Origin: Paraburkholderia fungorum
GTDB taxonomy: Bacteria > Pseudomonadota > Gammaproteobacteria > Burkholderiales > Burkholderiaceae
Direction: 5' to 3'
Length of the DNA: 64,000 nt
Assembly (NCBI RefSeq): GCF_900099835.1
Contig: NZ_FNKP01000003.1
Span: 744,001 to 808,000, forward strand
Shown here: positions 51,278 to 61,801 of the stretch, piece by piece
Position numbering within the stretch: the stretch's first letter is position 1
How the letters are laid out: the number at the start of each line of letters is the position of its first letter
Notes under the pieces: model-generated
What the model saw: only the letters and a program-made list of their open reading frames with translations
Told to the model about the DNA's origin: nothing
Database searches by the model: none
Translations under genes and position numbers: made by a program

Positions 51278-53344
51278 GTGCATGGCGTGGGCGAATTGAC
51301 AATGGCGCGCACTCGGTCACTGCGTATGCCGTGGCGCCTTACGTTCGCCCTACTGGTCGCCAGCCTCCTCTCCGGGTGCGCGATGGTGACCGTCAGCTCG
51401 CTCGGCCCCCAGCAATACATCGCCATGCGACGCGGCGATATTCTTTCCACGGGTCGGTTGAGCGCGGCGACTCGCGACACGTTGCGCATCGCGGCGCTCG
51501 ATGAAGGCGCATGTCAACAAAACCCGCAAGCGTGCATCGATTCGATCGCGACCGTTCCGGGTATCAATATCGACCAGCGTCTTGCCAGCCTGGCCGAGCT
51601 TTCGCTTCAGATGGCGATGGCTCAAACGCCGGCCAACAACGCGTCCTGGAGTGACGCCCAATTCGATCTCTGGCTGAGAACGGTCAGATACGCTTATGCC
51701 TATCTCTTCTACGGGCAGCGCACGGCGGGTGAACGTGCGTTCGAAGATCGGCAGACGCAGGTGCGTGACTATTACAACTACGCGGCGCAGGAACTCGCGA
51801 CTGCCCTATTCCGCCGAGGCGCGGTCGGCACCGACGCGGACAATCGGGACCCCGCCAAGCAGGTGATAGGAAACTGGACAATTCACATCGACTTAAGCCG
51901 GTTTCGATTGCCTGAAGGTGTGCGCGAACCACGCGAAGTTATACCGGCATCAAGGCTTTCTTTTGCAGGACTGCGCAGTATTTATCGCCGCGACGGTTTG
52001 GGCGCGGAGCTGGTCGCGGTGATGAACACTCCCTCGCCAGCCGAACGCGCCGAACCGGGTCATGCCGACGACGCGGCCAGCGCGACCGAAGCCGCAGAGG
52101 ATTCCACGAGCGGCACGACAACTACCGGGACATCGGGACGTCCCACGTCGGCCCCGGTCTTTCGTGAAATGCCATCGCCGAACGTCACCGCGCTGTTTCT
52201 GTTCAACGTCGAGACGCTGGAAGAATTGCGCGACACACGTGATGTGATTCTGGCGGTCTACGACCCCTATCGCGAAGCAAGTGTTCAGCGGCATGACCAG
52301 ACCGTGCCGCTAGCGGCCAACTTTAGTGCGGGTTACGGGATCTGGCTCGCGCGCTCGGGTTTTGCCGGACAGTCGTTACGCACGCTGTTTGGCCGCGCAC
52401 GCGGCATTGATACTCCGCGCATTTATATGATGCAGCCATTCGATCCCGATCGACGCATCATTCTGATGCTGCACGGGCTGGCGAGCAGTCCCGAGGCGTG
52501 GGTCAATGTCGCGAACGACATTCAAGGCGACGATGTGCTTCGTCAGCATTTTCAGGTGTGGCAGGTTTATTACCCGACCAACGTGCCGATTCTCGTTAGT
52601 CTCGCGCGAATTCGCAGAGCCGCGCGGCAGACCTTGCAACACTTCGACCCGGACGGCACGTCGACGGCATCGCACGGCATGGTGTTGATCGGACACAGCA
52701 TGGGCGGCGTTATCGCGAGGCTGTTGGTTTCGACATCCGATGAAGAACTATGGACCACGTTCCAGGACAAGTATTTACCCGAGGGCGCCGAGTTAGACCG
52801 CGAGGATGAACGGCTGAACCGGCTGCTACGCTTTTCGCCGATGCCGCAGGTCGAGCGGGCGATTTTCATTGCCGCGCCTCACCGCGGCACGCCGTTCGCG
52901 AGCAATCGCATCGCTCGCTGGGCGGCGAACCTGGTGCGCCTGCCGCTTGCGCTGCTGCACGAATTCGAAGAAGTGATGCAGAGCGCGACCAACATTGAAA
53001 GCGGGGACAAGGAGCGGCAGACGTTCCATGTGCCTAACAGTATCGAGCAGTTGCGTGAGAGCGATCCGCTGATTCAGGCGACTGCGCAGTTGCCGATCAG
53101 CCCCGAAGTCTGCTTCCACTCGATTATCGCGAGGCGTAGGGAAACGGGCCCGCTTGAAGATTCCGACGATGGTGTGGTGCCGTATCGGAGCGCGCATCTC
53201 GCCGACGCACGATCTGAAATGGTGATCGTCTCGGGACATAGCGTGCAGGAGACGCCGCAGGCCATCCGGGAAATTCGGCGGATTTTGCATGAGGATATTG
53301 CGGAAGTGGCGAAGGAAGATGGGGCGGTGGGGTGTGGGCGGTGA
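51278..53344 (+). CDS. alpha/beta-hydrolase (lipase-like) lipoprotein
   Basis: 688 residues from ATG 51278, or 680 from ATG 51302. The lipobox is in LLVASLLSGC. The C-terminal half has the alpha/beta-hydrolase fold: HGLASSPEAWVN near residue 400 (oxyanion region), GHSMGG with the nucleophile Ser near residue 475, and a His near residue 660 (VSGHSVQE). The Asp of DSDDGVVPY can complete the triad. The N-terminal half (residues 30-300) is a helical domain without known family, with a Thr/Ser-rich linker near 270. It is larger than simple lipases and may act on envelope lipids or polymers. It is the last gene before the gene-poor region. Confidence 0.8.
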   Translation: MHGVGELTMARTRSLRMPWRLTFALLVASLLSGCAMVTVSSLGPQQYIAMRRGDILSTGRLSAATRDTLRIAALDEGACQQNPQACIDSIATVPGINIDQRLASLAELSLQMAMAQTPANNASWSDAQFDLWLRTVRYAYAYLFYGQRTAGERAFEDRQTQVRDYYNYAAQELATALFRRGAVGTDADNRDPAKQVIGNWTIHIDLSRFRLPEGVREPREVIPASRLSFAGLRSIYRRDGLGAELVAVMNTPSPAERAEPGHADDAASATEAAEDSTSGTTTTGTSGRPTSAPVFREMPSPNVTALFLFNVETLEELRDTRDVILAVYDPYREASVQRHDQTVPLAANFSAGYGIWLARSGFAGQSLRTLFGRARGIDTPRIYMMQPFDPDRRIILMLHGLASSPEAWVNVANDIQGDDVLRQHFQVWQVYYPTNVPILVSLARIRRAARQTLQHFDPDGTSTASHGMVLIGHSMGGVIARLLVSTSDEELWTTFQDKYLPEGAELDREDERLNRLLRFSPMPQVERAIFIAAPHRGTPFASNRIARWAANLVRLPLALLHEFEEVMQSATNIESGDKERQTFHVPNSIEQLRESDPLIQATAQLPISPEVCFHSIIARRRETGPLEDSDDGVVPYRSAHLADARSEMVIVSGHSVQETPQAIREIRRILHEDIAEVAKEDGAVGCGR

Positions 53345-56300
53345 GTGCAGTGGGGTTGCGTGCTCGGGTTGGTGGCCTGGTGATTGCGAGGGGCAGTTTT
53401 TGGGGAGACCTGGGATTCGGCCGGTTTGTGGTTTGCGTGGGCGTGACTGCTAACTGAGGTTATCGCTGTCTTTGTCCATGAAGGAGGCACCATGGCATTT
53501 GCAAAGTCCGAGCGTGCCTGATAAACATGTGGGCCGATAATTCGCTCACGGATGAAGGTGCGGGTTGCCTCATTGGCAATGCCTTCAGGCTCTCATTCTG
53601 TCGACGCGCGTCTTTGACGAAACATCTTATGGAAGATGTCCAATTGATTAGGATTGCAGTTCATATCGTCGACTGAGAAGCCGAGCGAACGCTTTATCGG
53701 GGGAAGTCTGATTGAGGGGAATCGGGCGGACGTGTGGAGCCAGATGAATTACGGGGATGGCTGTGGCTGACCTGGTCGTTGCGACCGCGCCTGGGTTCGG
53801 CCATGCGCCGTTGTCTGGCAGATCAGCATAGTCAATGAATCGAACGCGGAATTGGCTTCCCGCGAATTGGCAAGCACACCTAGATCGTCTTCGTGACCGA
53901 CTCCGCCGCTCGCTTCTGACTCCGGTTCGGTTCGGTTCGGTGAGACGTGGCCTATAAGTTATCACGCCCTTAAGGGCCGCTCCGCGCCGGTCGCGCTCTC
54001 AGCGAGTTGCTGGTGGGCGAGCGTCCGCAAACGCAGAACGGTGCGCTGGAAATCTTTGCAGACCGGCAATGACCGTTGGTGCGGCGAGTAGCTGAACCTA
54101 AGTAGCGCGAGGGTCTGCGGCGTGCGTGCCAATGATTGCGAATTTCTACTTGCACTAGCGTATGTTGGTCCGCGTCTGCGCCACCCGGCGTGTCCCAGGT
54201 TGCGAAGATGCGCGTTATATCGCGACGCGGGGCGGGATTTCCTTTGCAGATCTTTCGATTCCGTTGCGCAGGTGTTTGCCAACTATGTGGTCGCCCGGAA
54301 TATGAAATTGATCGGCAAGTGCGATTCGGCGTGGATGCTCTGTCGCGTGGACGGCGCGGTCAAAGTTGACTGCCTCAGTGAGGCTTTGAAACTGGCGGCA
54401 CGGCAGTGCGAATGAGTCGGCTTCCGCCGGTTCTAGTTATGGCTAACCTCTTACGCAGAGCACTGTCGAGTCGTGAATGATGGCACTCACGGTTGTCGCC
54501 GAAGCGAGCCAAAGGCGCTGACGATGCTAATAAAAGTTGGCATCTTTCAAAAGCCACTTCTTGCGATAAAAACTCCTTTACCCCCCCCCACTACACATTA
54601 CGTAGCAAATAATACAAATCGCCAAGCATGATCCTAGTTCTGATTGGAAAAGAACGGATTTCAAGGAAACAAGCTGACGCGGGTTATCAAAGCATCTATT
54701 TTCGTGAAACATATGCTCTAAACTTAAAGAAAAACCATATTAAACAATAAGTTATTTTGGCAAACAAATATTCACTAATGTTTCACAGAATCAAAGACGA
54801 ACGAAGTAGCCCGCGAGACGATATTTGTCGTAGACGCTGATCGGATTGCTCCACATTTGGGAGTCGGGTCCGTCAAGCTTCGCTCTGCAGGAGGTTCCGA
54901 TACTCATAACAACAGGTTTCGTACTGATTGCGAACCGATAAAGATTCGATTCCTGAAGCGATTCGATATGTCCCTATATTTTTATGGTACGAGAGTTTTT
55001 GTTTCAGACAGTTGGGCGACTGTTTGTGATTCCGTGCGCGGCGTTGGCGTATCTCGTATGGTTGATTGAAATAGCCGTGTCGAGCTAACTGCAAGTGCCG
55101 TCTGAATCACTCGCTCCAACGTGATCAAGCGAATCGCTTACGTCTGAGCAAGACAATTAGCATCGCCGCGGCATTGGTAATTTGTGTCGTTGTCCAGCTT
55201 AGGCCGGTACTCTCCCCTAGCTGCTCCCCAGGCATGGCCGCTAGCGGCCTCGCTTGACAACAAGGCGTTTAGTTAAAGCGAGCAACCGATCTGGACCCCG
55301 TATGTCTCCAGCTTAAGAGCAGACCATTAAAGGCATAGGCCAGCTCGTCTGAATGCGTACAGGTAAGCTGTTCGTACACGAGAGAGATATGCAAACTCGA
55401 TCGGCGTCTAAGCAATTCTTCCGAACTACTGCCTCGCGCGCATTAGAAGTAGAAAGCGCTATGACTGCAGGGAGTTGTTGACACTCTACTCCGGTTAGAA
55501 GGGTCCGAGTTTCCTGGCGGTTACAAACGCTAAAGGAAGGGCGAGGTTGCGGCCGTGGTAGGGCGTGGACAAATGAGGATTGCGGGCATTCGACAATGGG
55601 CCGATGACCTGCTTTGACCACCGTCGACTCGATCACGCGTCGCTTCGCTGATGCGATATACACGTCGATTTTAGGTGAGATCTCAAGAAACCCAACGCGA
55701 TGCGAGAAATATGCCTCGCGGTGACGCGACTACTTCGGTTCGCTGCGAGGGCGGAGCAAAATCTTTGGCGCATCGGGTTCACATAGACGGCGACAGCAGC
55801 AGCCACAAAAAAGGAGCGATGGCGATTTCACCGCTAAGCTGCTCCTATGAGCCGCTCTCCATGACAAAGTTGAAAACTGAGGTTTTTCACTAAAACCGGT
55901 ACTTCATCGGGCATCGAGTCCAGCGGTATCCGGCTTTCGATTGCAGGTCGGTTTGTCTGCCTACCGCTCGGCTATTCCCGAATGAAGATTTATCAACAGC
56001 GGATATAGCTCTGTCGCTACCCTCGCGAATAAGCAAGCCGAGAGGCAATTCAGCATTTTACAAGCCGACGACAACTGCGATGGGCTACTAGCCACATCCC
56101 CTAACAATGAAAATATGCCGCGGCAGACGTTATGCATTGCTCGGTGGACACCACTATTGGCGGTACTCAAGCAGATAGGGGAGTTTCTGTCTGAGAGGCC
56201 CCGTCGCCTTCCTCCAATAGTCAGCGTGATCCTGGCCTAATAGGTCATGTGATCGCCGTCCGGTTGTACTGGGGCGTATTGGGATGAAAACACGATAGCG

Positions 56301-57160: not shown

Positions 57161-58135
57161 TCAGCTTGTTTTTGGCTGTGTCTGAAACATTTCGCCGATG
57201 AGTTGCCGTATCTGCACCTCTTGCGCCTCGGTCAGCACACCCGCTTTAATCTTAATGGTGAAGTTGCTAACGTCTTTGGTGATGCTTCCGGCCTGCTCTC
57301 GTCCCGAGAAAAATTTATCGATGCTACGTCCAGTGGTCGCCTCTGACGAGGTCTTTCGCGTCGCCAGCGCGGCAATAGCAGCGGCTGCCTTGCCTTGGTC
57401 CATTTCCCCTCTCGCTACAAGCGGCCAAATCTCCGTGGCGGCTTTGACGCCATCTTCACCATGCTTTTTGATACTGGCGGCGATAGCTTGTGCCGCTGTT
57501 CCCCCAAGTAAGCGAGGCTGAATGTCGAGGTCTTTTTTTACAAAATCAGGCAAATTTTCAAACGCTAGAAATTGATAGAGACCCGCGCGCGACAAACCCA
57601 TCGCCTCTGCCAATCGCTTACGGTTAGGAAACTCTGATTCCGATCGTCGAATGGCAACACCGATTTCGTAATCAGCCAAATCGTCCCGACTAATATTCTC
57701 AACCATCGCAAGCACGGCCATGTCTGAATCAGTACATTCCGCGACGACGGCTTTGATTGCATCAATACCCAACATCTTGTGGGCACGCCAACGGCGTTCG
57801 CCAGCAACAATCTGATAGTCATCCCCGGTACGACGGACGACGATAGGCTGCATCAAACCCACCTCGCGGATGGATTCCGCGAGTTCTGTCAGCTTGGCTT
57901 CGTTGAACACGCGTCGAGGTTGCCAAGGATTCGGCAAGATTCCACCCACCTGCAACAGCGACGCTACGCCTGTTGACTCCAACTCCTGTACGCGAAGTTG
58001 CGCGACGGCCAAAGCACCGGCGAGGCCTGGCGCAGTCTGCGTACGATTGCTACGCTTAACTTCCTCTTCATTGATAGACGAAGTCTTACGGATGCCAGAC
58101 GTCTTTGCCAGCAGTTGTTCTCGCATATTGCTCAT
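57161..58135 (-). CDS. parB: ParB-family partition protein
   Basis: 324 residues from ATG 58135, overlapping the parA stop (ATGA). The N-terminal ParB/CTPase motifs are present: NPWQPRRVFNEAKLTELAESI, then VAGERRWRAHKMLG, with VENISRDDLADYEIG. The central helix-turn-helix (KRLAEAMGLSRAGLYQFLAF) reads parS. The C-terminal part is mostly helical with an EVQIRQLIGEMF end for dimerisation. ParB spreads around parS and stimulates ParA to separate daughter replicons. It is more like plasmid/secondary-chromosome ParB than the main-chromosome form. Both genes are transcribed away from repA, and the paired palindromes lie just past its 3' end. Confidence 0.92.
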   Translation of the reverse strand: MSNMREQLLAKTSGIRKTSSINEEEVKRSNRTQTAPGLAGALAVAQLRVQELESTGVASLLQVGGILPNPWQPRRVFNEAKLTELAESIREVGLMQPIVVRRTGDDYQIVAGERRWRAHKMLGIDAIKAVVAECTDSDMAVLAMVENISRDDLADYEIGVAIRRSESEFPNRKRLAEAMGLSRAGLYQFLAFENLPDFVKKDLDIQPRLLGGTAAQAIAASIKKHGEDGVKAATEIWPLVARGEMDQGKAAAAIAALATRKTSSEATTGRSIDKFFSGREQAGSITKDVSNFTIKIKAGVLTEAQEVQIRQLIGEMFQTQPKTS

Positions 58136-59343
58136 TGCGCATTCCTCCATTTTTCCGAATAGATCTCATCGATCCATCGGCAGTAGTCGACGAGTGGCTG
58201 CTTGACTCGTTGCAGCGACTTGGCCGCACTATGGGTACTGCTAATATCGAAGACCGTCGAGAAGGCTAAAGCTCCTGTGCTCATTACCGAACTCGCCGGA
58301 ACCTCAATTGAATGCAGCCAGTTTTCGTAAGCACTTTGCGCCCAGGCGCGCACAATCGGCGCGGATGAGTTTCGCCCGTAGTCCACTCGCGAAAGCACGA
58401 GTGAAACGAAGTCGTACTTCTTATCCTTTTCATATTTGATAAAGCTTTTCGATACGTCTGAAAAAAGCCTCCAGAACGACAGCGAACTAATGAAATCCAG
58501 GTTTTCAGGAACCATCGGCATAATCATTGCATCGGCGGCCATCAGCGCATTCAGATTTAGATACGAGAGCGAAGGTGACGTATCCATCAGAATGTAGTCG
58601 TACTTCTTTCGCAGAGGTTCGAGACCCTGGCGAAGCACAGTCCAGAATCGGAAGCCTGGCTTCATCTTTTGCATCGCAGGCAGATGAAACTCCGCCCCAA
58701 TCAACTCAGTGTGAGCAGGGATCACGTCGATGCCATCCCAATAAGTTGACTGCACTCGAGCCTCCAGACCGCCCTCAATGTCCTGATCGTAGACAAACGG
58801 CAGCACCGTGTCCTCGGGCGTCACGTCTTTTTCTGCATACAGTCCACAAAGCTCCGACAGTGACGCCTGCGGATCGAGGTCGACCACCAACACCTTTCGA
58901 CCGCGTAGTGACAGCCCTTGCGCCAGACACATAGTCGTGGTCGTCTTGGCGGACCCGCCTTTTAACTGCGCCGTTATGACGATTTTTCCATCGGGCTCTT
59001 TCAGACGCGTAACGAGCGATGTCTGATATATGTCCGACACCTTTTGCACCCAGATCCGCGCTTCTTCCAAGGTAAAAGTTCGCGTCCGGCCGGTGCCGGC
59101 TGCGGTACCCGGGGGCAATTCACCATCGCCTTTGGTGGCGAGATATTGAACCTGCGAGTGGGAGATATTGCACATCTCGGCGATTTCTCCCGTTTTGAAA
59201 ACGGGAGCCGTCTTTCGCGGACGAGGAGCCAGAATCGTGTCACGCAGTTCATTTGTGAAAATCGTGACCTTTTCCGCAAACTGGCTAATCTGCTCAAAAT
59301 GCACTGTTCGGTCTACGGCAGGGAGTTGGCTCGTTCTGACCAT
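58132..59343 (-). CDS. parA: ParA-family partition ATPase
   Basis: 403 residues. An N-terminal helix-turn-helix extension (TGEIAEMCNISHSQVQYLA, residues 51-70) precedes the ATPase, so it is a type Ia ParA, able to bind its own promoter. The deviant Walker A is KGGSAKTT (128-135); Walker A' and B appear in VLVVDLDPQ and YILMDTSPSL. It forms a dynamic gradient on DNA that moves ParB-parS complexes. The start ATG lies inside one arm of a 12-base inverted repeat that is probably the operator. It is divergent from repA with the iteron region between. Confidence 0.93.
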   Translation of the reverse strand: MVRTSQLPAVDRTVHFEQISQFAEKVTIFTNELRDTILAPRPRKTAPVFKTGEIAEMCNISHSQVQYLATKGDGELPPGTAAGTGRTRTFTLEEARIWVQKVSDIYQTSLVTRLKEPDGKIVITAQLKGGSAKTTTTMCLAQGLSLRGRKVLVVDLDPQASLSELCGLYAEKDVTPEDTVLPFVYDQDIEGGLEARVQSTYWDGIDVIPAHTELIGAEFHLPAMQKMKPGFRFWTVLRQGLEPLRKKYDYILMDTSPSLSYLNLNALMAADAMIMPMVPENLDFISSLSFWRLFSDVSKSFIKYEKDKKYDFVSLVLSRVDYGRNSSAPIVRAWAQSAYENWLHSIEVPASSVMSTGALAFSTVFDISSTHSAAKSLQRVKQPLVDYCRWIDEIYSEKWRNAQ

Positions 59344-59381
59344 TCTGAGGTTTTTCCATAAAATTCTAGAAACCTCAGAAT
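59342..59381. promoter_or_regulatory. inverted-repeat operator at parA start
   Basis: ATTCTGAGGTTT (59342-59353) and AAACCTCAGAAT (59370-59381) are perfect 12-base arms around a 16-base spacer. The first arm overlaps the parA start codon. The spacer holds a possible minus-strand -10, TAGAAT. Each arm contains the 7-base core TGAGGTT that is shared with the iterons, so RepA as well as ParA might bind here. Confidence 0.65.
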
Positions 59382-59551: not shown

Positions 59552-60339
59552 GCACAAATGACCTCACCGTCCTTGTTTAAACATCGTAAAAATACAGAAA
59601 AATGCTCAAAAAATAACCACAAGGTGAGGCCCGTTGTGCAGATCAGCCCGTTGTCCAAATGCGTGGAACGACAATCAGCACAACCAACCTCACCTTCGTC
59701 CACTGAACGGTTGGATCCTCGGTGCATTTCTGCCGAAATAGGATAGTCTCGAGCACACGCACAATGAACCTCACCATCCTCCAGGTTAAAAACCGGTGAT
59801 CGATTCAAACCTAGCGAACCAATCACTGCCTCGTAAGCCACGCGCAGCACAATGAACCTCACCATCCACGCTACATTCGTTCCCGGCACAACAAACCTCA
59901 CCTTGATGTCCGGCTCTCACATTCATGTCTGAACGCTGGTTTGTTTGTTTTTTTTAAATCGTAAACAAGCCAACCAACAAACAGGGAATCTCTATCCCAA
60001 TTAAATTCAAGTACTTAATGGTCTCAAGGTGAGGTTATATGTGTAAAAGGTGAGGTTGGCTGTGCCTGAAGGTGCGGTTGAATGTGCAGCAAGGTGAGAC
60101 CTGTTCCGCACGTTGGTGAGGTTAGATGTGTTTAGACGCGGCTTAAACGCACAGGGTGAGGTGCATTGTGCGAACGCGATGGAATTACCCTTCGAGCCCG
60201 TCTACAAGGGATTTCCACCGAGAAGACGCTACGTAAAAGGTGAGGTTAATTGTGTCAACGGTGAGGTTTAATGTGCGCGCCCGGGATTCGGCCACCACCT
60301 CAGCCTTCCAGTCAGACTTGATGGTGAGGTTCTGTGTGT
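59552..60339. repeat. iteron array of the replication origin
   Basis: At least fifteen copies of a 17-base repeat with consensus GGTGAGGTTNANTGTGC. Minus-orientation copies start at 59552, 59678, 59759, 59847 and 59886. Plus-orientation copies start at 59623, 60028, 60049, 60071, 60093 (degenerate), 60115, 60155, 60239, 60260 and 60323. The five copies from 60028 to 60115 are spaced 21-22 bases, two helical turns. The array ends in front of repA. Direct iterons bound by the initiator are the normal origin and copy-control element of Rep_3-type replicons. The two orientations largely diverge from an A/T-rich centre at about 59940-60020. Confidence 0.92.
59938..60020. other. A/T-rich centre of the iteron region, likely DNA-unwinding element
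   Basis: A stretch with GGTTTGTTTG, a run of eight T and AAATTCAAGTACTTAATGG (cited in parts) lies between the left, mostly inverted iterons and the right, direct iterons. An A/T-rich element next to iterons is where initiators melt DNA. No clear DnaA box (TTATCCACA) was seen near it by eye. Confidence 0.5.
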
Positions 60340-60367
60340 TGACAGCTCACCACCGCATGCTTAAAGT
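60339..60367 (+). promoter_or_regulatory. repA promoter
   Basis: A perfect -35 TTGACA (60339-60344), a 17-base spacer and TAAAGT (60362-60367) as -10. The last iteron (60323-60339) abuts and shares one base with the -35. RepA bound there should block the promoter, giving autoregulation. Confidence 0.65.
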
Positions 60368-60388: not shown

Positions 60389-61801
60389 ATGAAAAACATG
60401 GCGGCGGACAGTCCGGAAGAAGGCAAGTCGAAGGTAACGTCGCGACAAATGGCACTTGCGCTATTTGAGGACATGTTCGACCTGGGACTGCGCATCAACG
60501 AGGCCAATCGCGAAATCGGCTATCAGCGCAACGATTTCTTCACCGAAATCGTCAATATGGGGCTACCGGCGCGTCGCTTCCTCGACGCCGCATATTTCAT
60601 CGTTGCACAAGAGCCCGAACAGCGCGACCAGTACGACGTCGAGCTGAATTACTTCAAGTGGTTGATGCGCTATGACAGCCGCAATCTCAAGCACTTGCGC
60701 ACCATTGCAGACGAAGCTCAGAACGCCAAGGTTCGGGTAACGAATACGCCTATGGACCGGGACCCCAATGAGAATGATCTGTGGGTTCAAGTCCAGCTCA
60801 TCGGCATGGTTGGTTTTCATCGCGGGCGGATGCGCTTCGACGTCCACCCTCGTCTTGTTCCGCATATCCGCGATCCGCAAAAATCTCATTGGCTGAGTCT
60901 GCGCATTTCAACTGCGTTCACGCGCAGCCTCGCGCGCGCAATTTACGACAAGGTGATGCCGCACGTCCCGGCGGGCCGTACGGATTGGATTCAGCTCGAT
61001 GAGATGCGCAATTGGCCCGGCAGAATGGGCGCGAATGCCGCTATCTTCAAATATTTCAAGCGTGACTGGCTTGAACCGGCCGTGCGTGAGATCAACGATG
61101 TGTCAGACATCGAGTTGACGTACGAGACGAGGACTGCGTCGACGTCGTCAAAAAAAATTGACCGCATCCGGTTCTTGCTCAAACGTAAGGACACGGCTGA
61201 TGCCGTGCTGGCGAGCTTGGCCGACGCCAGCCATCTCTATAAGACCCTTACAGACGAGTTCACGCTCTCCACCAAGCAGTTCAGCGAAATCTCGGAAAAC
61301 CGCGACGTCTGGACCGACGAGCGTATCCAGCAGGCGATCGAATACACGCGATTCAGGATTAACCGAGGCCAGGTTAAAAAGAGTCCGGCCGGCTATCTGA
61401 TGAGAGCGCTCCGCGATAACTGGAAAATGTCCGACGCCGAGCGGACCATGGTCGATGTGCAGGCAAAGCTTTTAGCCGACGAAGTACAGGAGCAGGTCGC
61501 AAAAACCGAAGTGAGAAACTCGGTGGCGCGGAGCGTGGCGTCGCGTGAGGAAGAAGTTCGTGCGCGCATGAACGAGGATTCGGGTAAGGGGCGCGATTTC
61601 TTCAACGCTGCCGACGCGAGAACGCGGAACGAACTTTTGCACGCGTGGACGACGTCGCGGGAAGGCAAGCTGATGCTTCGGCGCATGAAACTCGAGCCGT
61701 CAACGGTGACTGAAGACGTTGTTCTGGCGAACACCGAATTGGTCTGGTATCTCGGGCAGTTCGTATTTGGGCGGATGAATTCGTCGCGTGCATTGGCTTG
61801 A
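60389..61801 (+). CDS. repA: RepA/Rep_3-family replication initiator
   Basis: 470 residues from ATG 60389. The N-terminal part (residues 20-180) and middle (SHWLSLRISTAFTRSLARAIYDKVMPHV, in parts; WIQLDEMRNWPGRMGANAAIFKYFKRDWLEPAVREIN) have the two winged-helix pattern of Rep_3/RepB initiators, ending with residues such as IDRIRFLLKRK. The C-terminal region (residues 370-440) is charged and helical (EEVRARMNEDSGKGR). It binds the iterons just upstream to start replication. It is longer than typical plasmid RepA (about 300 residues), as is common for Burkholderia secondary chromosomes and megaplasmids. It is divergent from parAB. Confidence 0.88.
   Translation: MKNMAADSPEEGKSKVTSRQMALALFEDMFDLGLRINEANREIGYQRNDFFTEIVNMGLPARRFLDAAYFIVAQEPEQRDQYDVELNYFKWLMRYDSRNLKHLRTIADEAQNAKVRVTNTPMDRDPNENDLWVQVQLIGMVGFHRGRMRFDVHPRLVPHIRDPQKSHWLSLRISTAFTRSLARAIYDKVMPHVPAGRTDWIQLDEMRNWPGRMGANAAIFKYFKRDWLEPAVREINDVSDIELTYETRTASTSSKKIDRIRFLLKRKDTADAVLASLADASHLYKTLTDEFTLSTKQFSEISENRDVWTDERIQQAIEYTRFRINRGQVKKSPAGYLMRALRDNWKMSDAERTMVDVQAKLLADEVQEQVAKTEVRNSVARSVASREEEVRARMNEDSGKGRDFFNAADARTRNELLHAWTTSREGKLMLRRMKLEPSTVTEDVVLANTELVWYLGQFVFGRMNSSRALA

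What the first reader, a model, noticed from the sequence alone, without database searches (positions are those of the whole stretch)
59552..60339. Large, mostly divergent iteron array with helically phased spacing
At least fifteen 17-base copies of GGTGAGGTTNANTGTGC are visible. All left-hand copies except one (59623) run on the minus strand and all right-hand copies on the plus strand, diverging from an A/T-rich centre. Five successive starts (60028, 60049, 60071, 60093, 60115) are 21-22 bases apart, two helical turns, so initiators would bind on one face. Iterons are usual for Rep_3 replicons, but this number in two opposing orientations is unusual and may indicate two functional modules: origin on the right, handcuffing or copy control on the left.
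Basis: partly seen in the sequence, partly recalled or inferred. Interest (0 to 1): 0.7.

Follow-up and report, generated by a model that had tools for sequence, protein, structure and literature searches.

The report
Two-part iteron origin of a megaplasmid
The repeats are most likely the landing sites of a plasmid replication protein, split into an evenly phased start-of-copying module and a loosely built, mostly opposite-facing module that probably limits copying; this layout is normal for a family of large plasmids in soil bacteria, not a freak of this one.

Summary
Fourteen clear copies and one half copy of GGTGAGGTTNNNTGTGC lie between divergent parA and a Rep_3 initiator gene (about 1 expected by chance in 64 kb). 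Left copies are 5 of 6 minus, right copies all plus. The array is not unusual in its family: I compared 105 distinct parA-rep gaps from relatives. A plus-strand right cluster with further copies upstream recurs in clades A-D, with iteron words that differ by clade. The minus bias of the left copies is clear in A and B, weak in C, absent in D; clade Bx was poorly resolved. In clade A the right module is rigid (nearly fixed positions, AT-rich element at a near-fixed distance); the left module varies. Where the iteron half-site differs between clades, the predicted DNA-reading helix of Rep differs too. The last iteron touches the rep -35 box and, in clade A, faces an inverted half-site, as in known autoregulatory operators. 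Best reading: origin and autorepression on the right, control (titration or handcuffing) iterons on the left, as in F incC or Vibrio ori2-inc. Binding and function are untested. Most novel detail: slot 4 keeps GGTGAG (38 of 42 relatives) but lost TGTG (38 of 42), a candidate weak Rep site.

The parts
57161..58150 (-). parB (ParB/RepB/Spo0J family), 329 aa
   Evidence: Pfam ParB_N E 3e-29; TIGR00180 above cut-off
58132..59343 (-). parA (Walker ATPase with N-terminal extension), 403 aa; read away from the array
   Evidence: Pfam AAA_31 E 6e-34; parA on the minus strand upstream of rep in 100 of 105 distinct loci, none detected in the other 5
59343..59380 (.). inverted repeat TTCTGAGGTTT-N16-AAACCTCAGAA touching the parA start codon: probable parA operator
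   Evidence: sequence; present in 11 of 15 aligned rows, several with a changed base; the other 4 rows do not reach this part; sequence differs between clades. Function inferred
59552..59568 (-). left-module iteron
59623..59639 (+). left-module iteron, the one plus-strand copy
59678..59694 (-). left-module iteron
59759..59775 (-). left-module iteron
59847..59863 (-). left-module iteron
59886..59902 (-). left-module iteron
59938..59984 (.). central AT-rich element GGTTTGTTTGTTTTTTTTAAA..AAACAAGCCAACCAACAAACAG, candidate DNA unwinding element
   Evidence: a T-rich/ACC-type element matched in 90 of 95 loci of clades A-D; its last AAC-type word lies 43-45 nt before the first right iteron in 81 of 95 (others 38-56 or not measured); block more AT-rich than the rest of the gap in 93 of 95. 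Against: the single most AT-rich 45 nt of the window's gap lie in the left module
60006..60018 (+). TTCAAGTACTTAA, conserved box between the AT-rich element and the first right iteron
   Evidence: TCAA-type word in the same stretch in 86 of 95 loci (A 42/42, B 18/18, C 14/22, D 12/13)
60028..60044 (+). right-module iteron, slot 1
60049..60065 (+). right-module iteron, slot 2, exactly 21 bp after slot 1 in 42 of 42 clade A loci
60071..60087 (+). right-module iteron, slot 3
60093..60109 (+). right-module half-iteron, slot 4: GGTGAG kept, TGTG lost
   Evidence: GGTGAG exact in 38 of 42, TGTG exact in 4 of 42 clade A loci; same pattern in an independent alignment
60115..60131 (+). right-module iteron, slot 5
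60155..60171 (+). right-module iteron
60239..60255 (+). right-module iteron
60260..60276 (+). right-module iteron
60323..60339 (+). promoter iteron; its 3' end overlaps the -35-like box of rep
   Evidence: iteron end next to TTGA in 42/42 A, 18/18 B, 25/25 C, 13/13 D, 5/7 Bx
60339..60351 (+). TTGACA (-35-like, 60339-60344) and inverted half-site CTCACC (60346-60351): probable autoregulatory operator
   Evidence: inverted half-site in 42/42 A, 19/25 C (GCACC in 5 of the 25), 5/7 Bx, 0/18 B, 0/13 D; CACCCC in 4/13 D
60389..61801 (+). rep: Rep_3-type initiator, 470 aa, two winged helices (about 47-268) plus an all-helical C-terminal part (about 269-470)

Best explanation
This is the replication control region of a Rep_3 (iteron-type, presumably theta) megaplasmid, built of two modules that share one Rep-binding word. 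RIGHT (59938-60351) is the origin: Rep monomers fill plus-strand iterons on one face of the helix and melt the AT-rich element at its left edge. The last iteron and the inverted half-site let Rep (probably as a dimer) repress its own promoter. LEFT (59552-59902) is a control module: mostly minus-strand, irregularly spaced, strong iterons that bind Rep and reduce initiation by titration and by pairing (handcuffing) with right iterons of the same or a sister plasmid; being next to parA it may also link Rep level to partition. Shown by sequence: the anatomy, its conservation, and the co-variation of iteron and Rep helix. Inferred from homologous systems: binding, melting, repression, handcuffing.
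For: Rep family and fold. Array beyond chance and confined to the origin. In 42 clade A loci the right module is nearly fixed in position and all plus (337 of 337 sites), the left one mixed (185 minus, 65 plus); slot 2 lies exactly 21 bp after slot 1 in 42 of 42. In the window right copies are in phase (R 0.87, p 0.0004), left minus copies not (R 0.65, p 0.17). AT-rich element at a near-fixed distance from right iteron 1 (43-45 nt in 81 of 95 loci). Left sites score higher than right with a matrix built on the other sub-clade (26.65 against 23.05 bits; left above right in 36 of 42 loci). Rep residues 220-228 go with the clade's iteron half-site: FKYFKRD with GGTGAG in 74 of 74 (A, Bx, C), FKHFR[PQ]KY with GGTAACG in 18 of 18 (B), VKEFKK[RH]F with GGGRCGG in 13 of 13 (D). 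In a tree made without that region A and B group together (support 1.0) with Bx and C outside, so helix and iteron changed on the same branch. Pi also reads FKRD at the aligned place, and its second winged helix contacts GAG (PMC4980987, passage).
Against: No binding or replication data. Iteron and helix changes amount to about two events on the tree, words were assigned by clade (locus L124 gave none de novo), and the support printed for A as a clade without B is only 0.40. Other Rep columns (24, 135, 161, 166) separate the classes as well. Clade B's ParA is also more diverged from the window's (51-60% identity) than that of C or D (62-67%), so B alone cannot separate Rep from Par; D argues for Rep. 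The pi and RepE sequence alignments are not significant alone (E 0.15 and 0.76-0.86), and the Rep model is of middling confidence (mean pLDDT 75, residues 211-220 under 50). The most AT-rich 45 nt of the window's gap lie in the left module (78% AT), not in the central element; over the 27 loci printed it fell on the central element in about 15 by my count. In clades C and D the upstream copies are few (medians 3.5 and 3) and in D not strand-biased, so a big reversed control module is not essential. The inverted half-site is absent in clade B (0 of 18). Across loci right-hand phasing reaches p < 0.05 in 25/42 A, 5/18 B, 0/5 Bx, 10/24 C and 10/13 D (left 1/35 A, 2/18 B, 0/4 Bx, 0/2 C); in B and C 10.75 bp fits better than 10.5. 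The window has no convincing separate DnaA box: its one exact 9-mer overlaps iteron 60028.
Confidence: 0.7

Rival explanations
1. The left iterons chiefly regulate parA: Rep bound there represses or activates the parAB promoter, tying partition to Rep level, with little effect on initiation.
For: They lie directly upstream of parA and mostly point at it, as right copies point at rep. In several clade C loci an iteron-like GGTGAGG, in some with an inverted CTCACC, sits near the parA start.
Against: In the window the nearest copy is over 200 bp from parA, and parA has its own inverted repeat at the start codon. Left copies vary in number, place and strand, unlike a fixed operator.
Confidence: 0.15
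2. The left copies are relics or a passive reservoir of an older array, kept by drift.
For: Number, position and orientation vary between relatives.
Against: In 36 of 42 loci left sites match the consensus better than right ones, scored with a matrix from the other sub-clade. Relics should decay first.
Confidence: 0.09
3. The left copies form a centromere (parS-like) bound by ParB, as reported for repeats upstream of parAB in Deinococcus secondary replicons.
For: Position beside parAB; precedent in PMC7671480 (abstract and section list seen).
Against: Left and right share one word, and its half-site goes with the Rep helix in three clade groups.
Confidence: 0.04
4. The left half is a second origin working in the other direction.
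For: Mirror-image orientation; the most AT-rich 45 nt of the gap lie between the two outermost left copies.
Against: No 21-22 bp run and no significant phasing. The AT-rich element found at a near-fixed distance from iterons belongs to the right module.
Confidence: 0.02

Closest known systems
F plasmid oriS/repE/incC (Rep_3, RepE)
   Same: AT-rich region, iterons, initiator gene with inverted-repeat operator, and a further iteron cluster (incC) that lowers copy number (PMC13028717, passages seen); RepE is the closest fold
   Different: incC lies downstream of repE; here the extra copies lie beyond the AT-rich element, mostly in the opposite orientation, next to parA
Vibrio cholerae chromosome 2 ori2-min / ori2-inc (RctB)
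   Same: adjacent replicating and inhibitory parts, both with initiator sites; head-to-tail iterons at regular spacing in the replicating part (PMC6090056, passages seen)
   Different: there a second site class (29/39-mers) is central to inhibition and 12-mers contain GATC; here one 17-bp word serves both modules and it contains no GATC
P1 plasmid incC origin iterons and incA control iterons
   Different: P1 incA lies on the far side of repA (recalled)
Burkholderia cenocepacia c2, c3 and p1 origins
   Same: iteron clusters of 19-21 bp near rep and par, some copies marked as reverse; the c2 word contains CTCACC (PMC4948915, passages seen; its supplement was not read)
   Different: the words differ overall; no two-module analysis appears in the passages seen
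Cupriavidus necator NH9 chromosome 2
   Same: repA and parAB homologues with 20 iteron-like repeats, so large numbers have precedent in the family (PMC6379261, passages seen)
   Different: another iteron word; arrangement not described in the passages seen

Membership tests
Rep_3 initiator | two winged-helix domains Rep3_N and Rep3_C | tested here: met
Iteron-type origin | direct repeats of about 17-22 bp beside the initiator gene, regularly spaced | tested here: met
Iteron-type origin | AT-rich unwinding element next to the iterons | tested here: met
   composition, position and conservation only; not the most AT-rich stretch of the window's gap; melting not tested
Iteron-type origin | DnaA box | tested here: inconclusive
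   window: only TTTTACACA, overlapping iteron 60028. TTATCCACA in some relatives; 21 exact TTWTNCACA in 105 loci against 5.2 in shuffles, some of them overlapping iterons
Iteron-type origin | initiator binds the repeats | not testable with these tools
   co-variation of Rep residues 220-228 and half-site only
Initiator autoregulation | inverted partial iterons over the rep promoter | tested here: met
   sequence level: 42 of 42 clade A; repression not tested
Control iterons (incC / incA type) | extra iterons outside the origin core | tested here: met
   left module in 42 of 42 clade A loci
Control iterons (incC / incA type) | lower copy number and exert incompatibility | not testable with these tools
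   needs experiment
Vibrio ori2 (RctB) type | Dam site (GATC) inside each iteron | tested here: not met
   none of the listed copies contains GATC; the whole parA-rep gap has 3

The most novel reading that the evidence does not exclude
Slot 4 of the origin is a selected half-iteron. It keeps only the half that the second winged helix probably reads, at a fixed place among full iterons, and serves as a built-in weak Rep site (for example a dimer or handcuffing dock, or a cooperativity switch). Two reviews (2016, 2024) state that weak Rep sites had been predicted but not shown in plasmid origins.
Probability: 0.3. Interest if true: 0.65.

Novelty: new member of a known kind. Interest (0 to 1): 0.42.

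Why it matters
It gives a compact natural case in which origin and putative control iterons can be told apart by sequence alone (rigid, phased, plus strand against loose, mixed strand). Its relatives have changed the iteron word together with the Rep helix, so initiator specificity and plasmid compatibility can be tested by swaps. If the half-iteron binds Rep weakly, it would answer a stated gap about weak initiator sites in plasmid origins.

Tried and rejected

Loci: 119 identifiers examined; 114 had a Rep match and a gap of at least 200 bases; 105 remained after dropping those whose last 400 bases were identical to another. They are a chosen sample of the hits, not all of them. Clade labels A (42), B (18), Bx (7), C (25), D (13) are mine. 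On checking the draft I added the AT-rich stretch in the left module as a result against my reading and lowered the main confidence from 0.72 to 0.70 for it.

Full report
OBSERVATION. The window is bases 744001-808000 of contig C3 of a 4-contig, 8.58 Mb genome. Fourteen copies of GGTGAGGTTNANTGTGC within 3 mismatches lie in 59552-60339, against 1.27 expected in the whole window. Strand separation and the 21-22 bp run are as described. The copies are not scattered: genome hits up to 2 mismatches number 75 against 52 for the reversed-pattern control, and the only other cluster I see is a sibling array on contig C4.

RELATIVES. 94 of 398 genomes sampled from the family have a Rep hit at E <= 1e-100. 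From these and from plasmid records I took 105 distinct parA-rep gaps. parA lies upstream on the minus strand in 100 of 105, with none detected in the other 5. A motif finder run on each locus separately found iteron words that differ between clades: clade A (42 loci, Rep 75-100% identical to the window) GGTGAGGTTnnTTGTGC; B (18) GGTAACGnTTTTTGTGC; C (25) AGGTGAGGTGnTTTGTG; D (13) about GGGGCGGTTTTTGTGC; Bx (7) poorly resolved; one clade C locus (L124) gave no word. Upstream of the right cluster, copies are minus/plus 199/71 in A, 137/53 in B, 48/29 in C and 21/17 in D, with medians of 6, 11, 3.5 and 3 per locus. So the gap with its right cluster and further upstream copies is a family trait, while the strong reversed bias is a trait of A and B.

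TWO MODULES. In clade A all 337 right-hand sites are on the plus strand and their positions relative to the promoter iteron are nearly fixed; slot 2 follows slot 1 by exactly 21 bp in 42 of 42. Of 250 left-hand sites 185 are minus and 65 plus, and their number and positions vary. In the window the nine right copies sit 28.1, 26.1, 24.0, 21.9, 19.8, 16.0, 8.0, 6.0 and 0 turns from the promoter iteron at 10.5 bp per turn (R 0.87, p 0.0004), while the five left minus copies do not phase (p 0.17); the five-copy run alone fits 11.0 bp better. Over all loci right-hand phasing reaches p < 0.05 in 25/42 A, 5/18 B, 0/5 Bx, 10/24 C and 10/13 D, left-hand in 1/35 A, 2/18 B, 0/4 Bx and 0/2 C; in B and C 10.75 bp fits better than 10.5. 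An AT-rich element (GTTnGTttGttttTTnaaa..AAACCnaCcaACnnACnAACag) followed by a TCAA..ACTTA box precedes the first right iteron: the element was matched in 90 of 95 loci of clades A-D, its last AAC-type word lies 43-45 nt before the iteron in 81 of 95, the TCAA-type word was found in 86 of 95, and the block is more AT-rich than the rest of the gap in 93 of 95. Against this, the single most AT-rich 45 nt of the window's gap lie in the left module (78% AT), and over the 27 loci printed it fell on the central element in about 15 by my count. I take the conserved, distance-fixed element, rather than the AT maximum, as the mark of the origin core. Left sites score higher than right sites with a matrix trained on the other sub-clade (26.65 against 23.05 bits; left above right in 36 of 42 loci); the weak right slots contribute to that difference.

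OPERATOR. The last iteron (60323) runs into TTGACA. This contact is seen in 42/42 A, 18/18 B, 25/25 C, 13/13 D and 5/7 Bx. An inverted half-site (CTCACC here) follows in 42/42 A, 19/25 C (GCACC in 5), 5/7 Bx, 0/18 B and 0/13 D, with CACCCC, partly matching D's own word, in 4/13. By analogy with F, whose RepE dimer binds inverted repeats at repE (PMC13028717, passage), this is an autoregulatory site; repression is inferred. A separate inverted repeat (59343-59380) touches the parA start.

REP READS THE WORD. Among the ten Rep columns that best separate the iteron classes, four lie in residues 222-227 and six in 213-227; the others are 24, 135, 161 and 166. Residues 220-228 are FKYFKRD(W/N/S) in 74 of 74 loci of the GGTGAG clades (A, Bx, C), FKHFR(P/Q)KY in 18 of 18 of clade B (GGTAACG) and VKEFKK(R/H)F in 13 of 13 of clade D (GGGRCGG). 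In a tree built without that region A and B group together (support 1.0) with Bx and C outside, so word and helix changed together on the branch to B; the support printed for A without B is 0.40. In the alignment with the PDB the region falls on FRRRF of RepE and FKRD of pi (E-values 0.76-0.86 and 0.15); the second winged helix of pi contacts GAG (PMC4980987, passage). A confounder is that clade B's ParA is also more diverged (51-60% against 62-67% for C and D), but D has an ordinary ParA identity and a different word. About two independent events support the link.

HALF-ITERON. Slot 4 (60093) keeps GGTGAG exactly in 38 of 42 clade A loci (within one mismatch in 42) but has TGTG in only 4 of 42; slots 1, 2 and 5 have TGTG in 42, 42 and 40, slot 3 in 35. 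An independent alignment shows the same block conserved at slot 4 while its other half varies. Reviews of 2016 and 2024 say that weak Rep sites were predicted but not shown in plasmid origins (PMC4980987; PMC10797057; passages seen). Partial iterons as such are known: a lactococcal theta origin is described with three and a half iterons (PMC6458302, passage). A search for 'half-iteron' and similar words found two Lactococcus papers only. The equivalent slot was looked at in B, C and D only by eye and not counted.

MECHANISM. Most likely: Rep monomers load cooperatively on the phased right module and open the AT-rich element; Rep represses its own promoter; the strong, irregular left copies hold Rep and pair with right copies, limiting initiation. 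F incC and Vibrio ori2-inc are described as acting by iteron pairing or titration (PMC13028717; PMC6090056; passages). The anatomy and conservation are shown here; binding, opening, repression and pairing are inferred.

NOVELTY. Iteron origins with extra control iterons are known, and 20 iteron-like repeats are reported for a Cupriavidus second chromosome (PMC6379261, passage). Here the control copies lie beyond the AT-rich element, mostly reversed, in the same gap as the origin, and the layout recurs in a Burkholderiaceae replicon family. In the searches (open-access papers only; listings, plus passages of a few) I found no description of it; the closest is the iteron listing for B. cenocepacia with reverse-marked copies (PMC4948915, passages; supplement not read). 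I file it as a new member of a known kind, with the half-iteron as the part most worth testing.

Noticed in passing
L042 (contig C4, 168500-176500) of the same genome: A sibling replicon with the same Rep residues FKYFKRDW and related iterons; its sites score 17-20 bits with the window's matrix, like weak native right sites of relatives, so the two plasmids may cross-talk.
   Followed up: partly
window 52306-52317 and 55237-55248: Palindrome GCCGCTAGCGGC occurs only at these two places in the whole genome, near parB; candidate parS. One site lies inside an open frame (51278-53344) and none of 148 fetched loci has it.
   Followed up: partly
window 61193-61801 (Rep residues 269-470): Conserved all-helical C-terminal domain not covered by the RepE or pi matches; no convincing family or fold match found.
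   Followed up: partly
parA start in clade C loci, e.g. L056, L117, L123: An iteron-like GGTGAGG near the parA start, in some loci with an inverted partner, hinting that Rep may regulate parA there.
   Followed up: no
clade B loci, e.g. L089-L106: ParA is more diverged here than in clades C and D although Rep is closer to clade A, suggesting that rep and par modules may have been exchanged.
   Followed up: no
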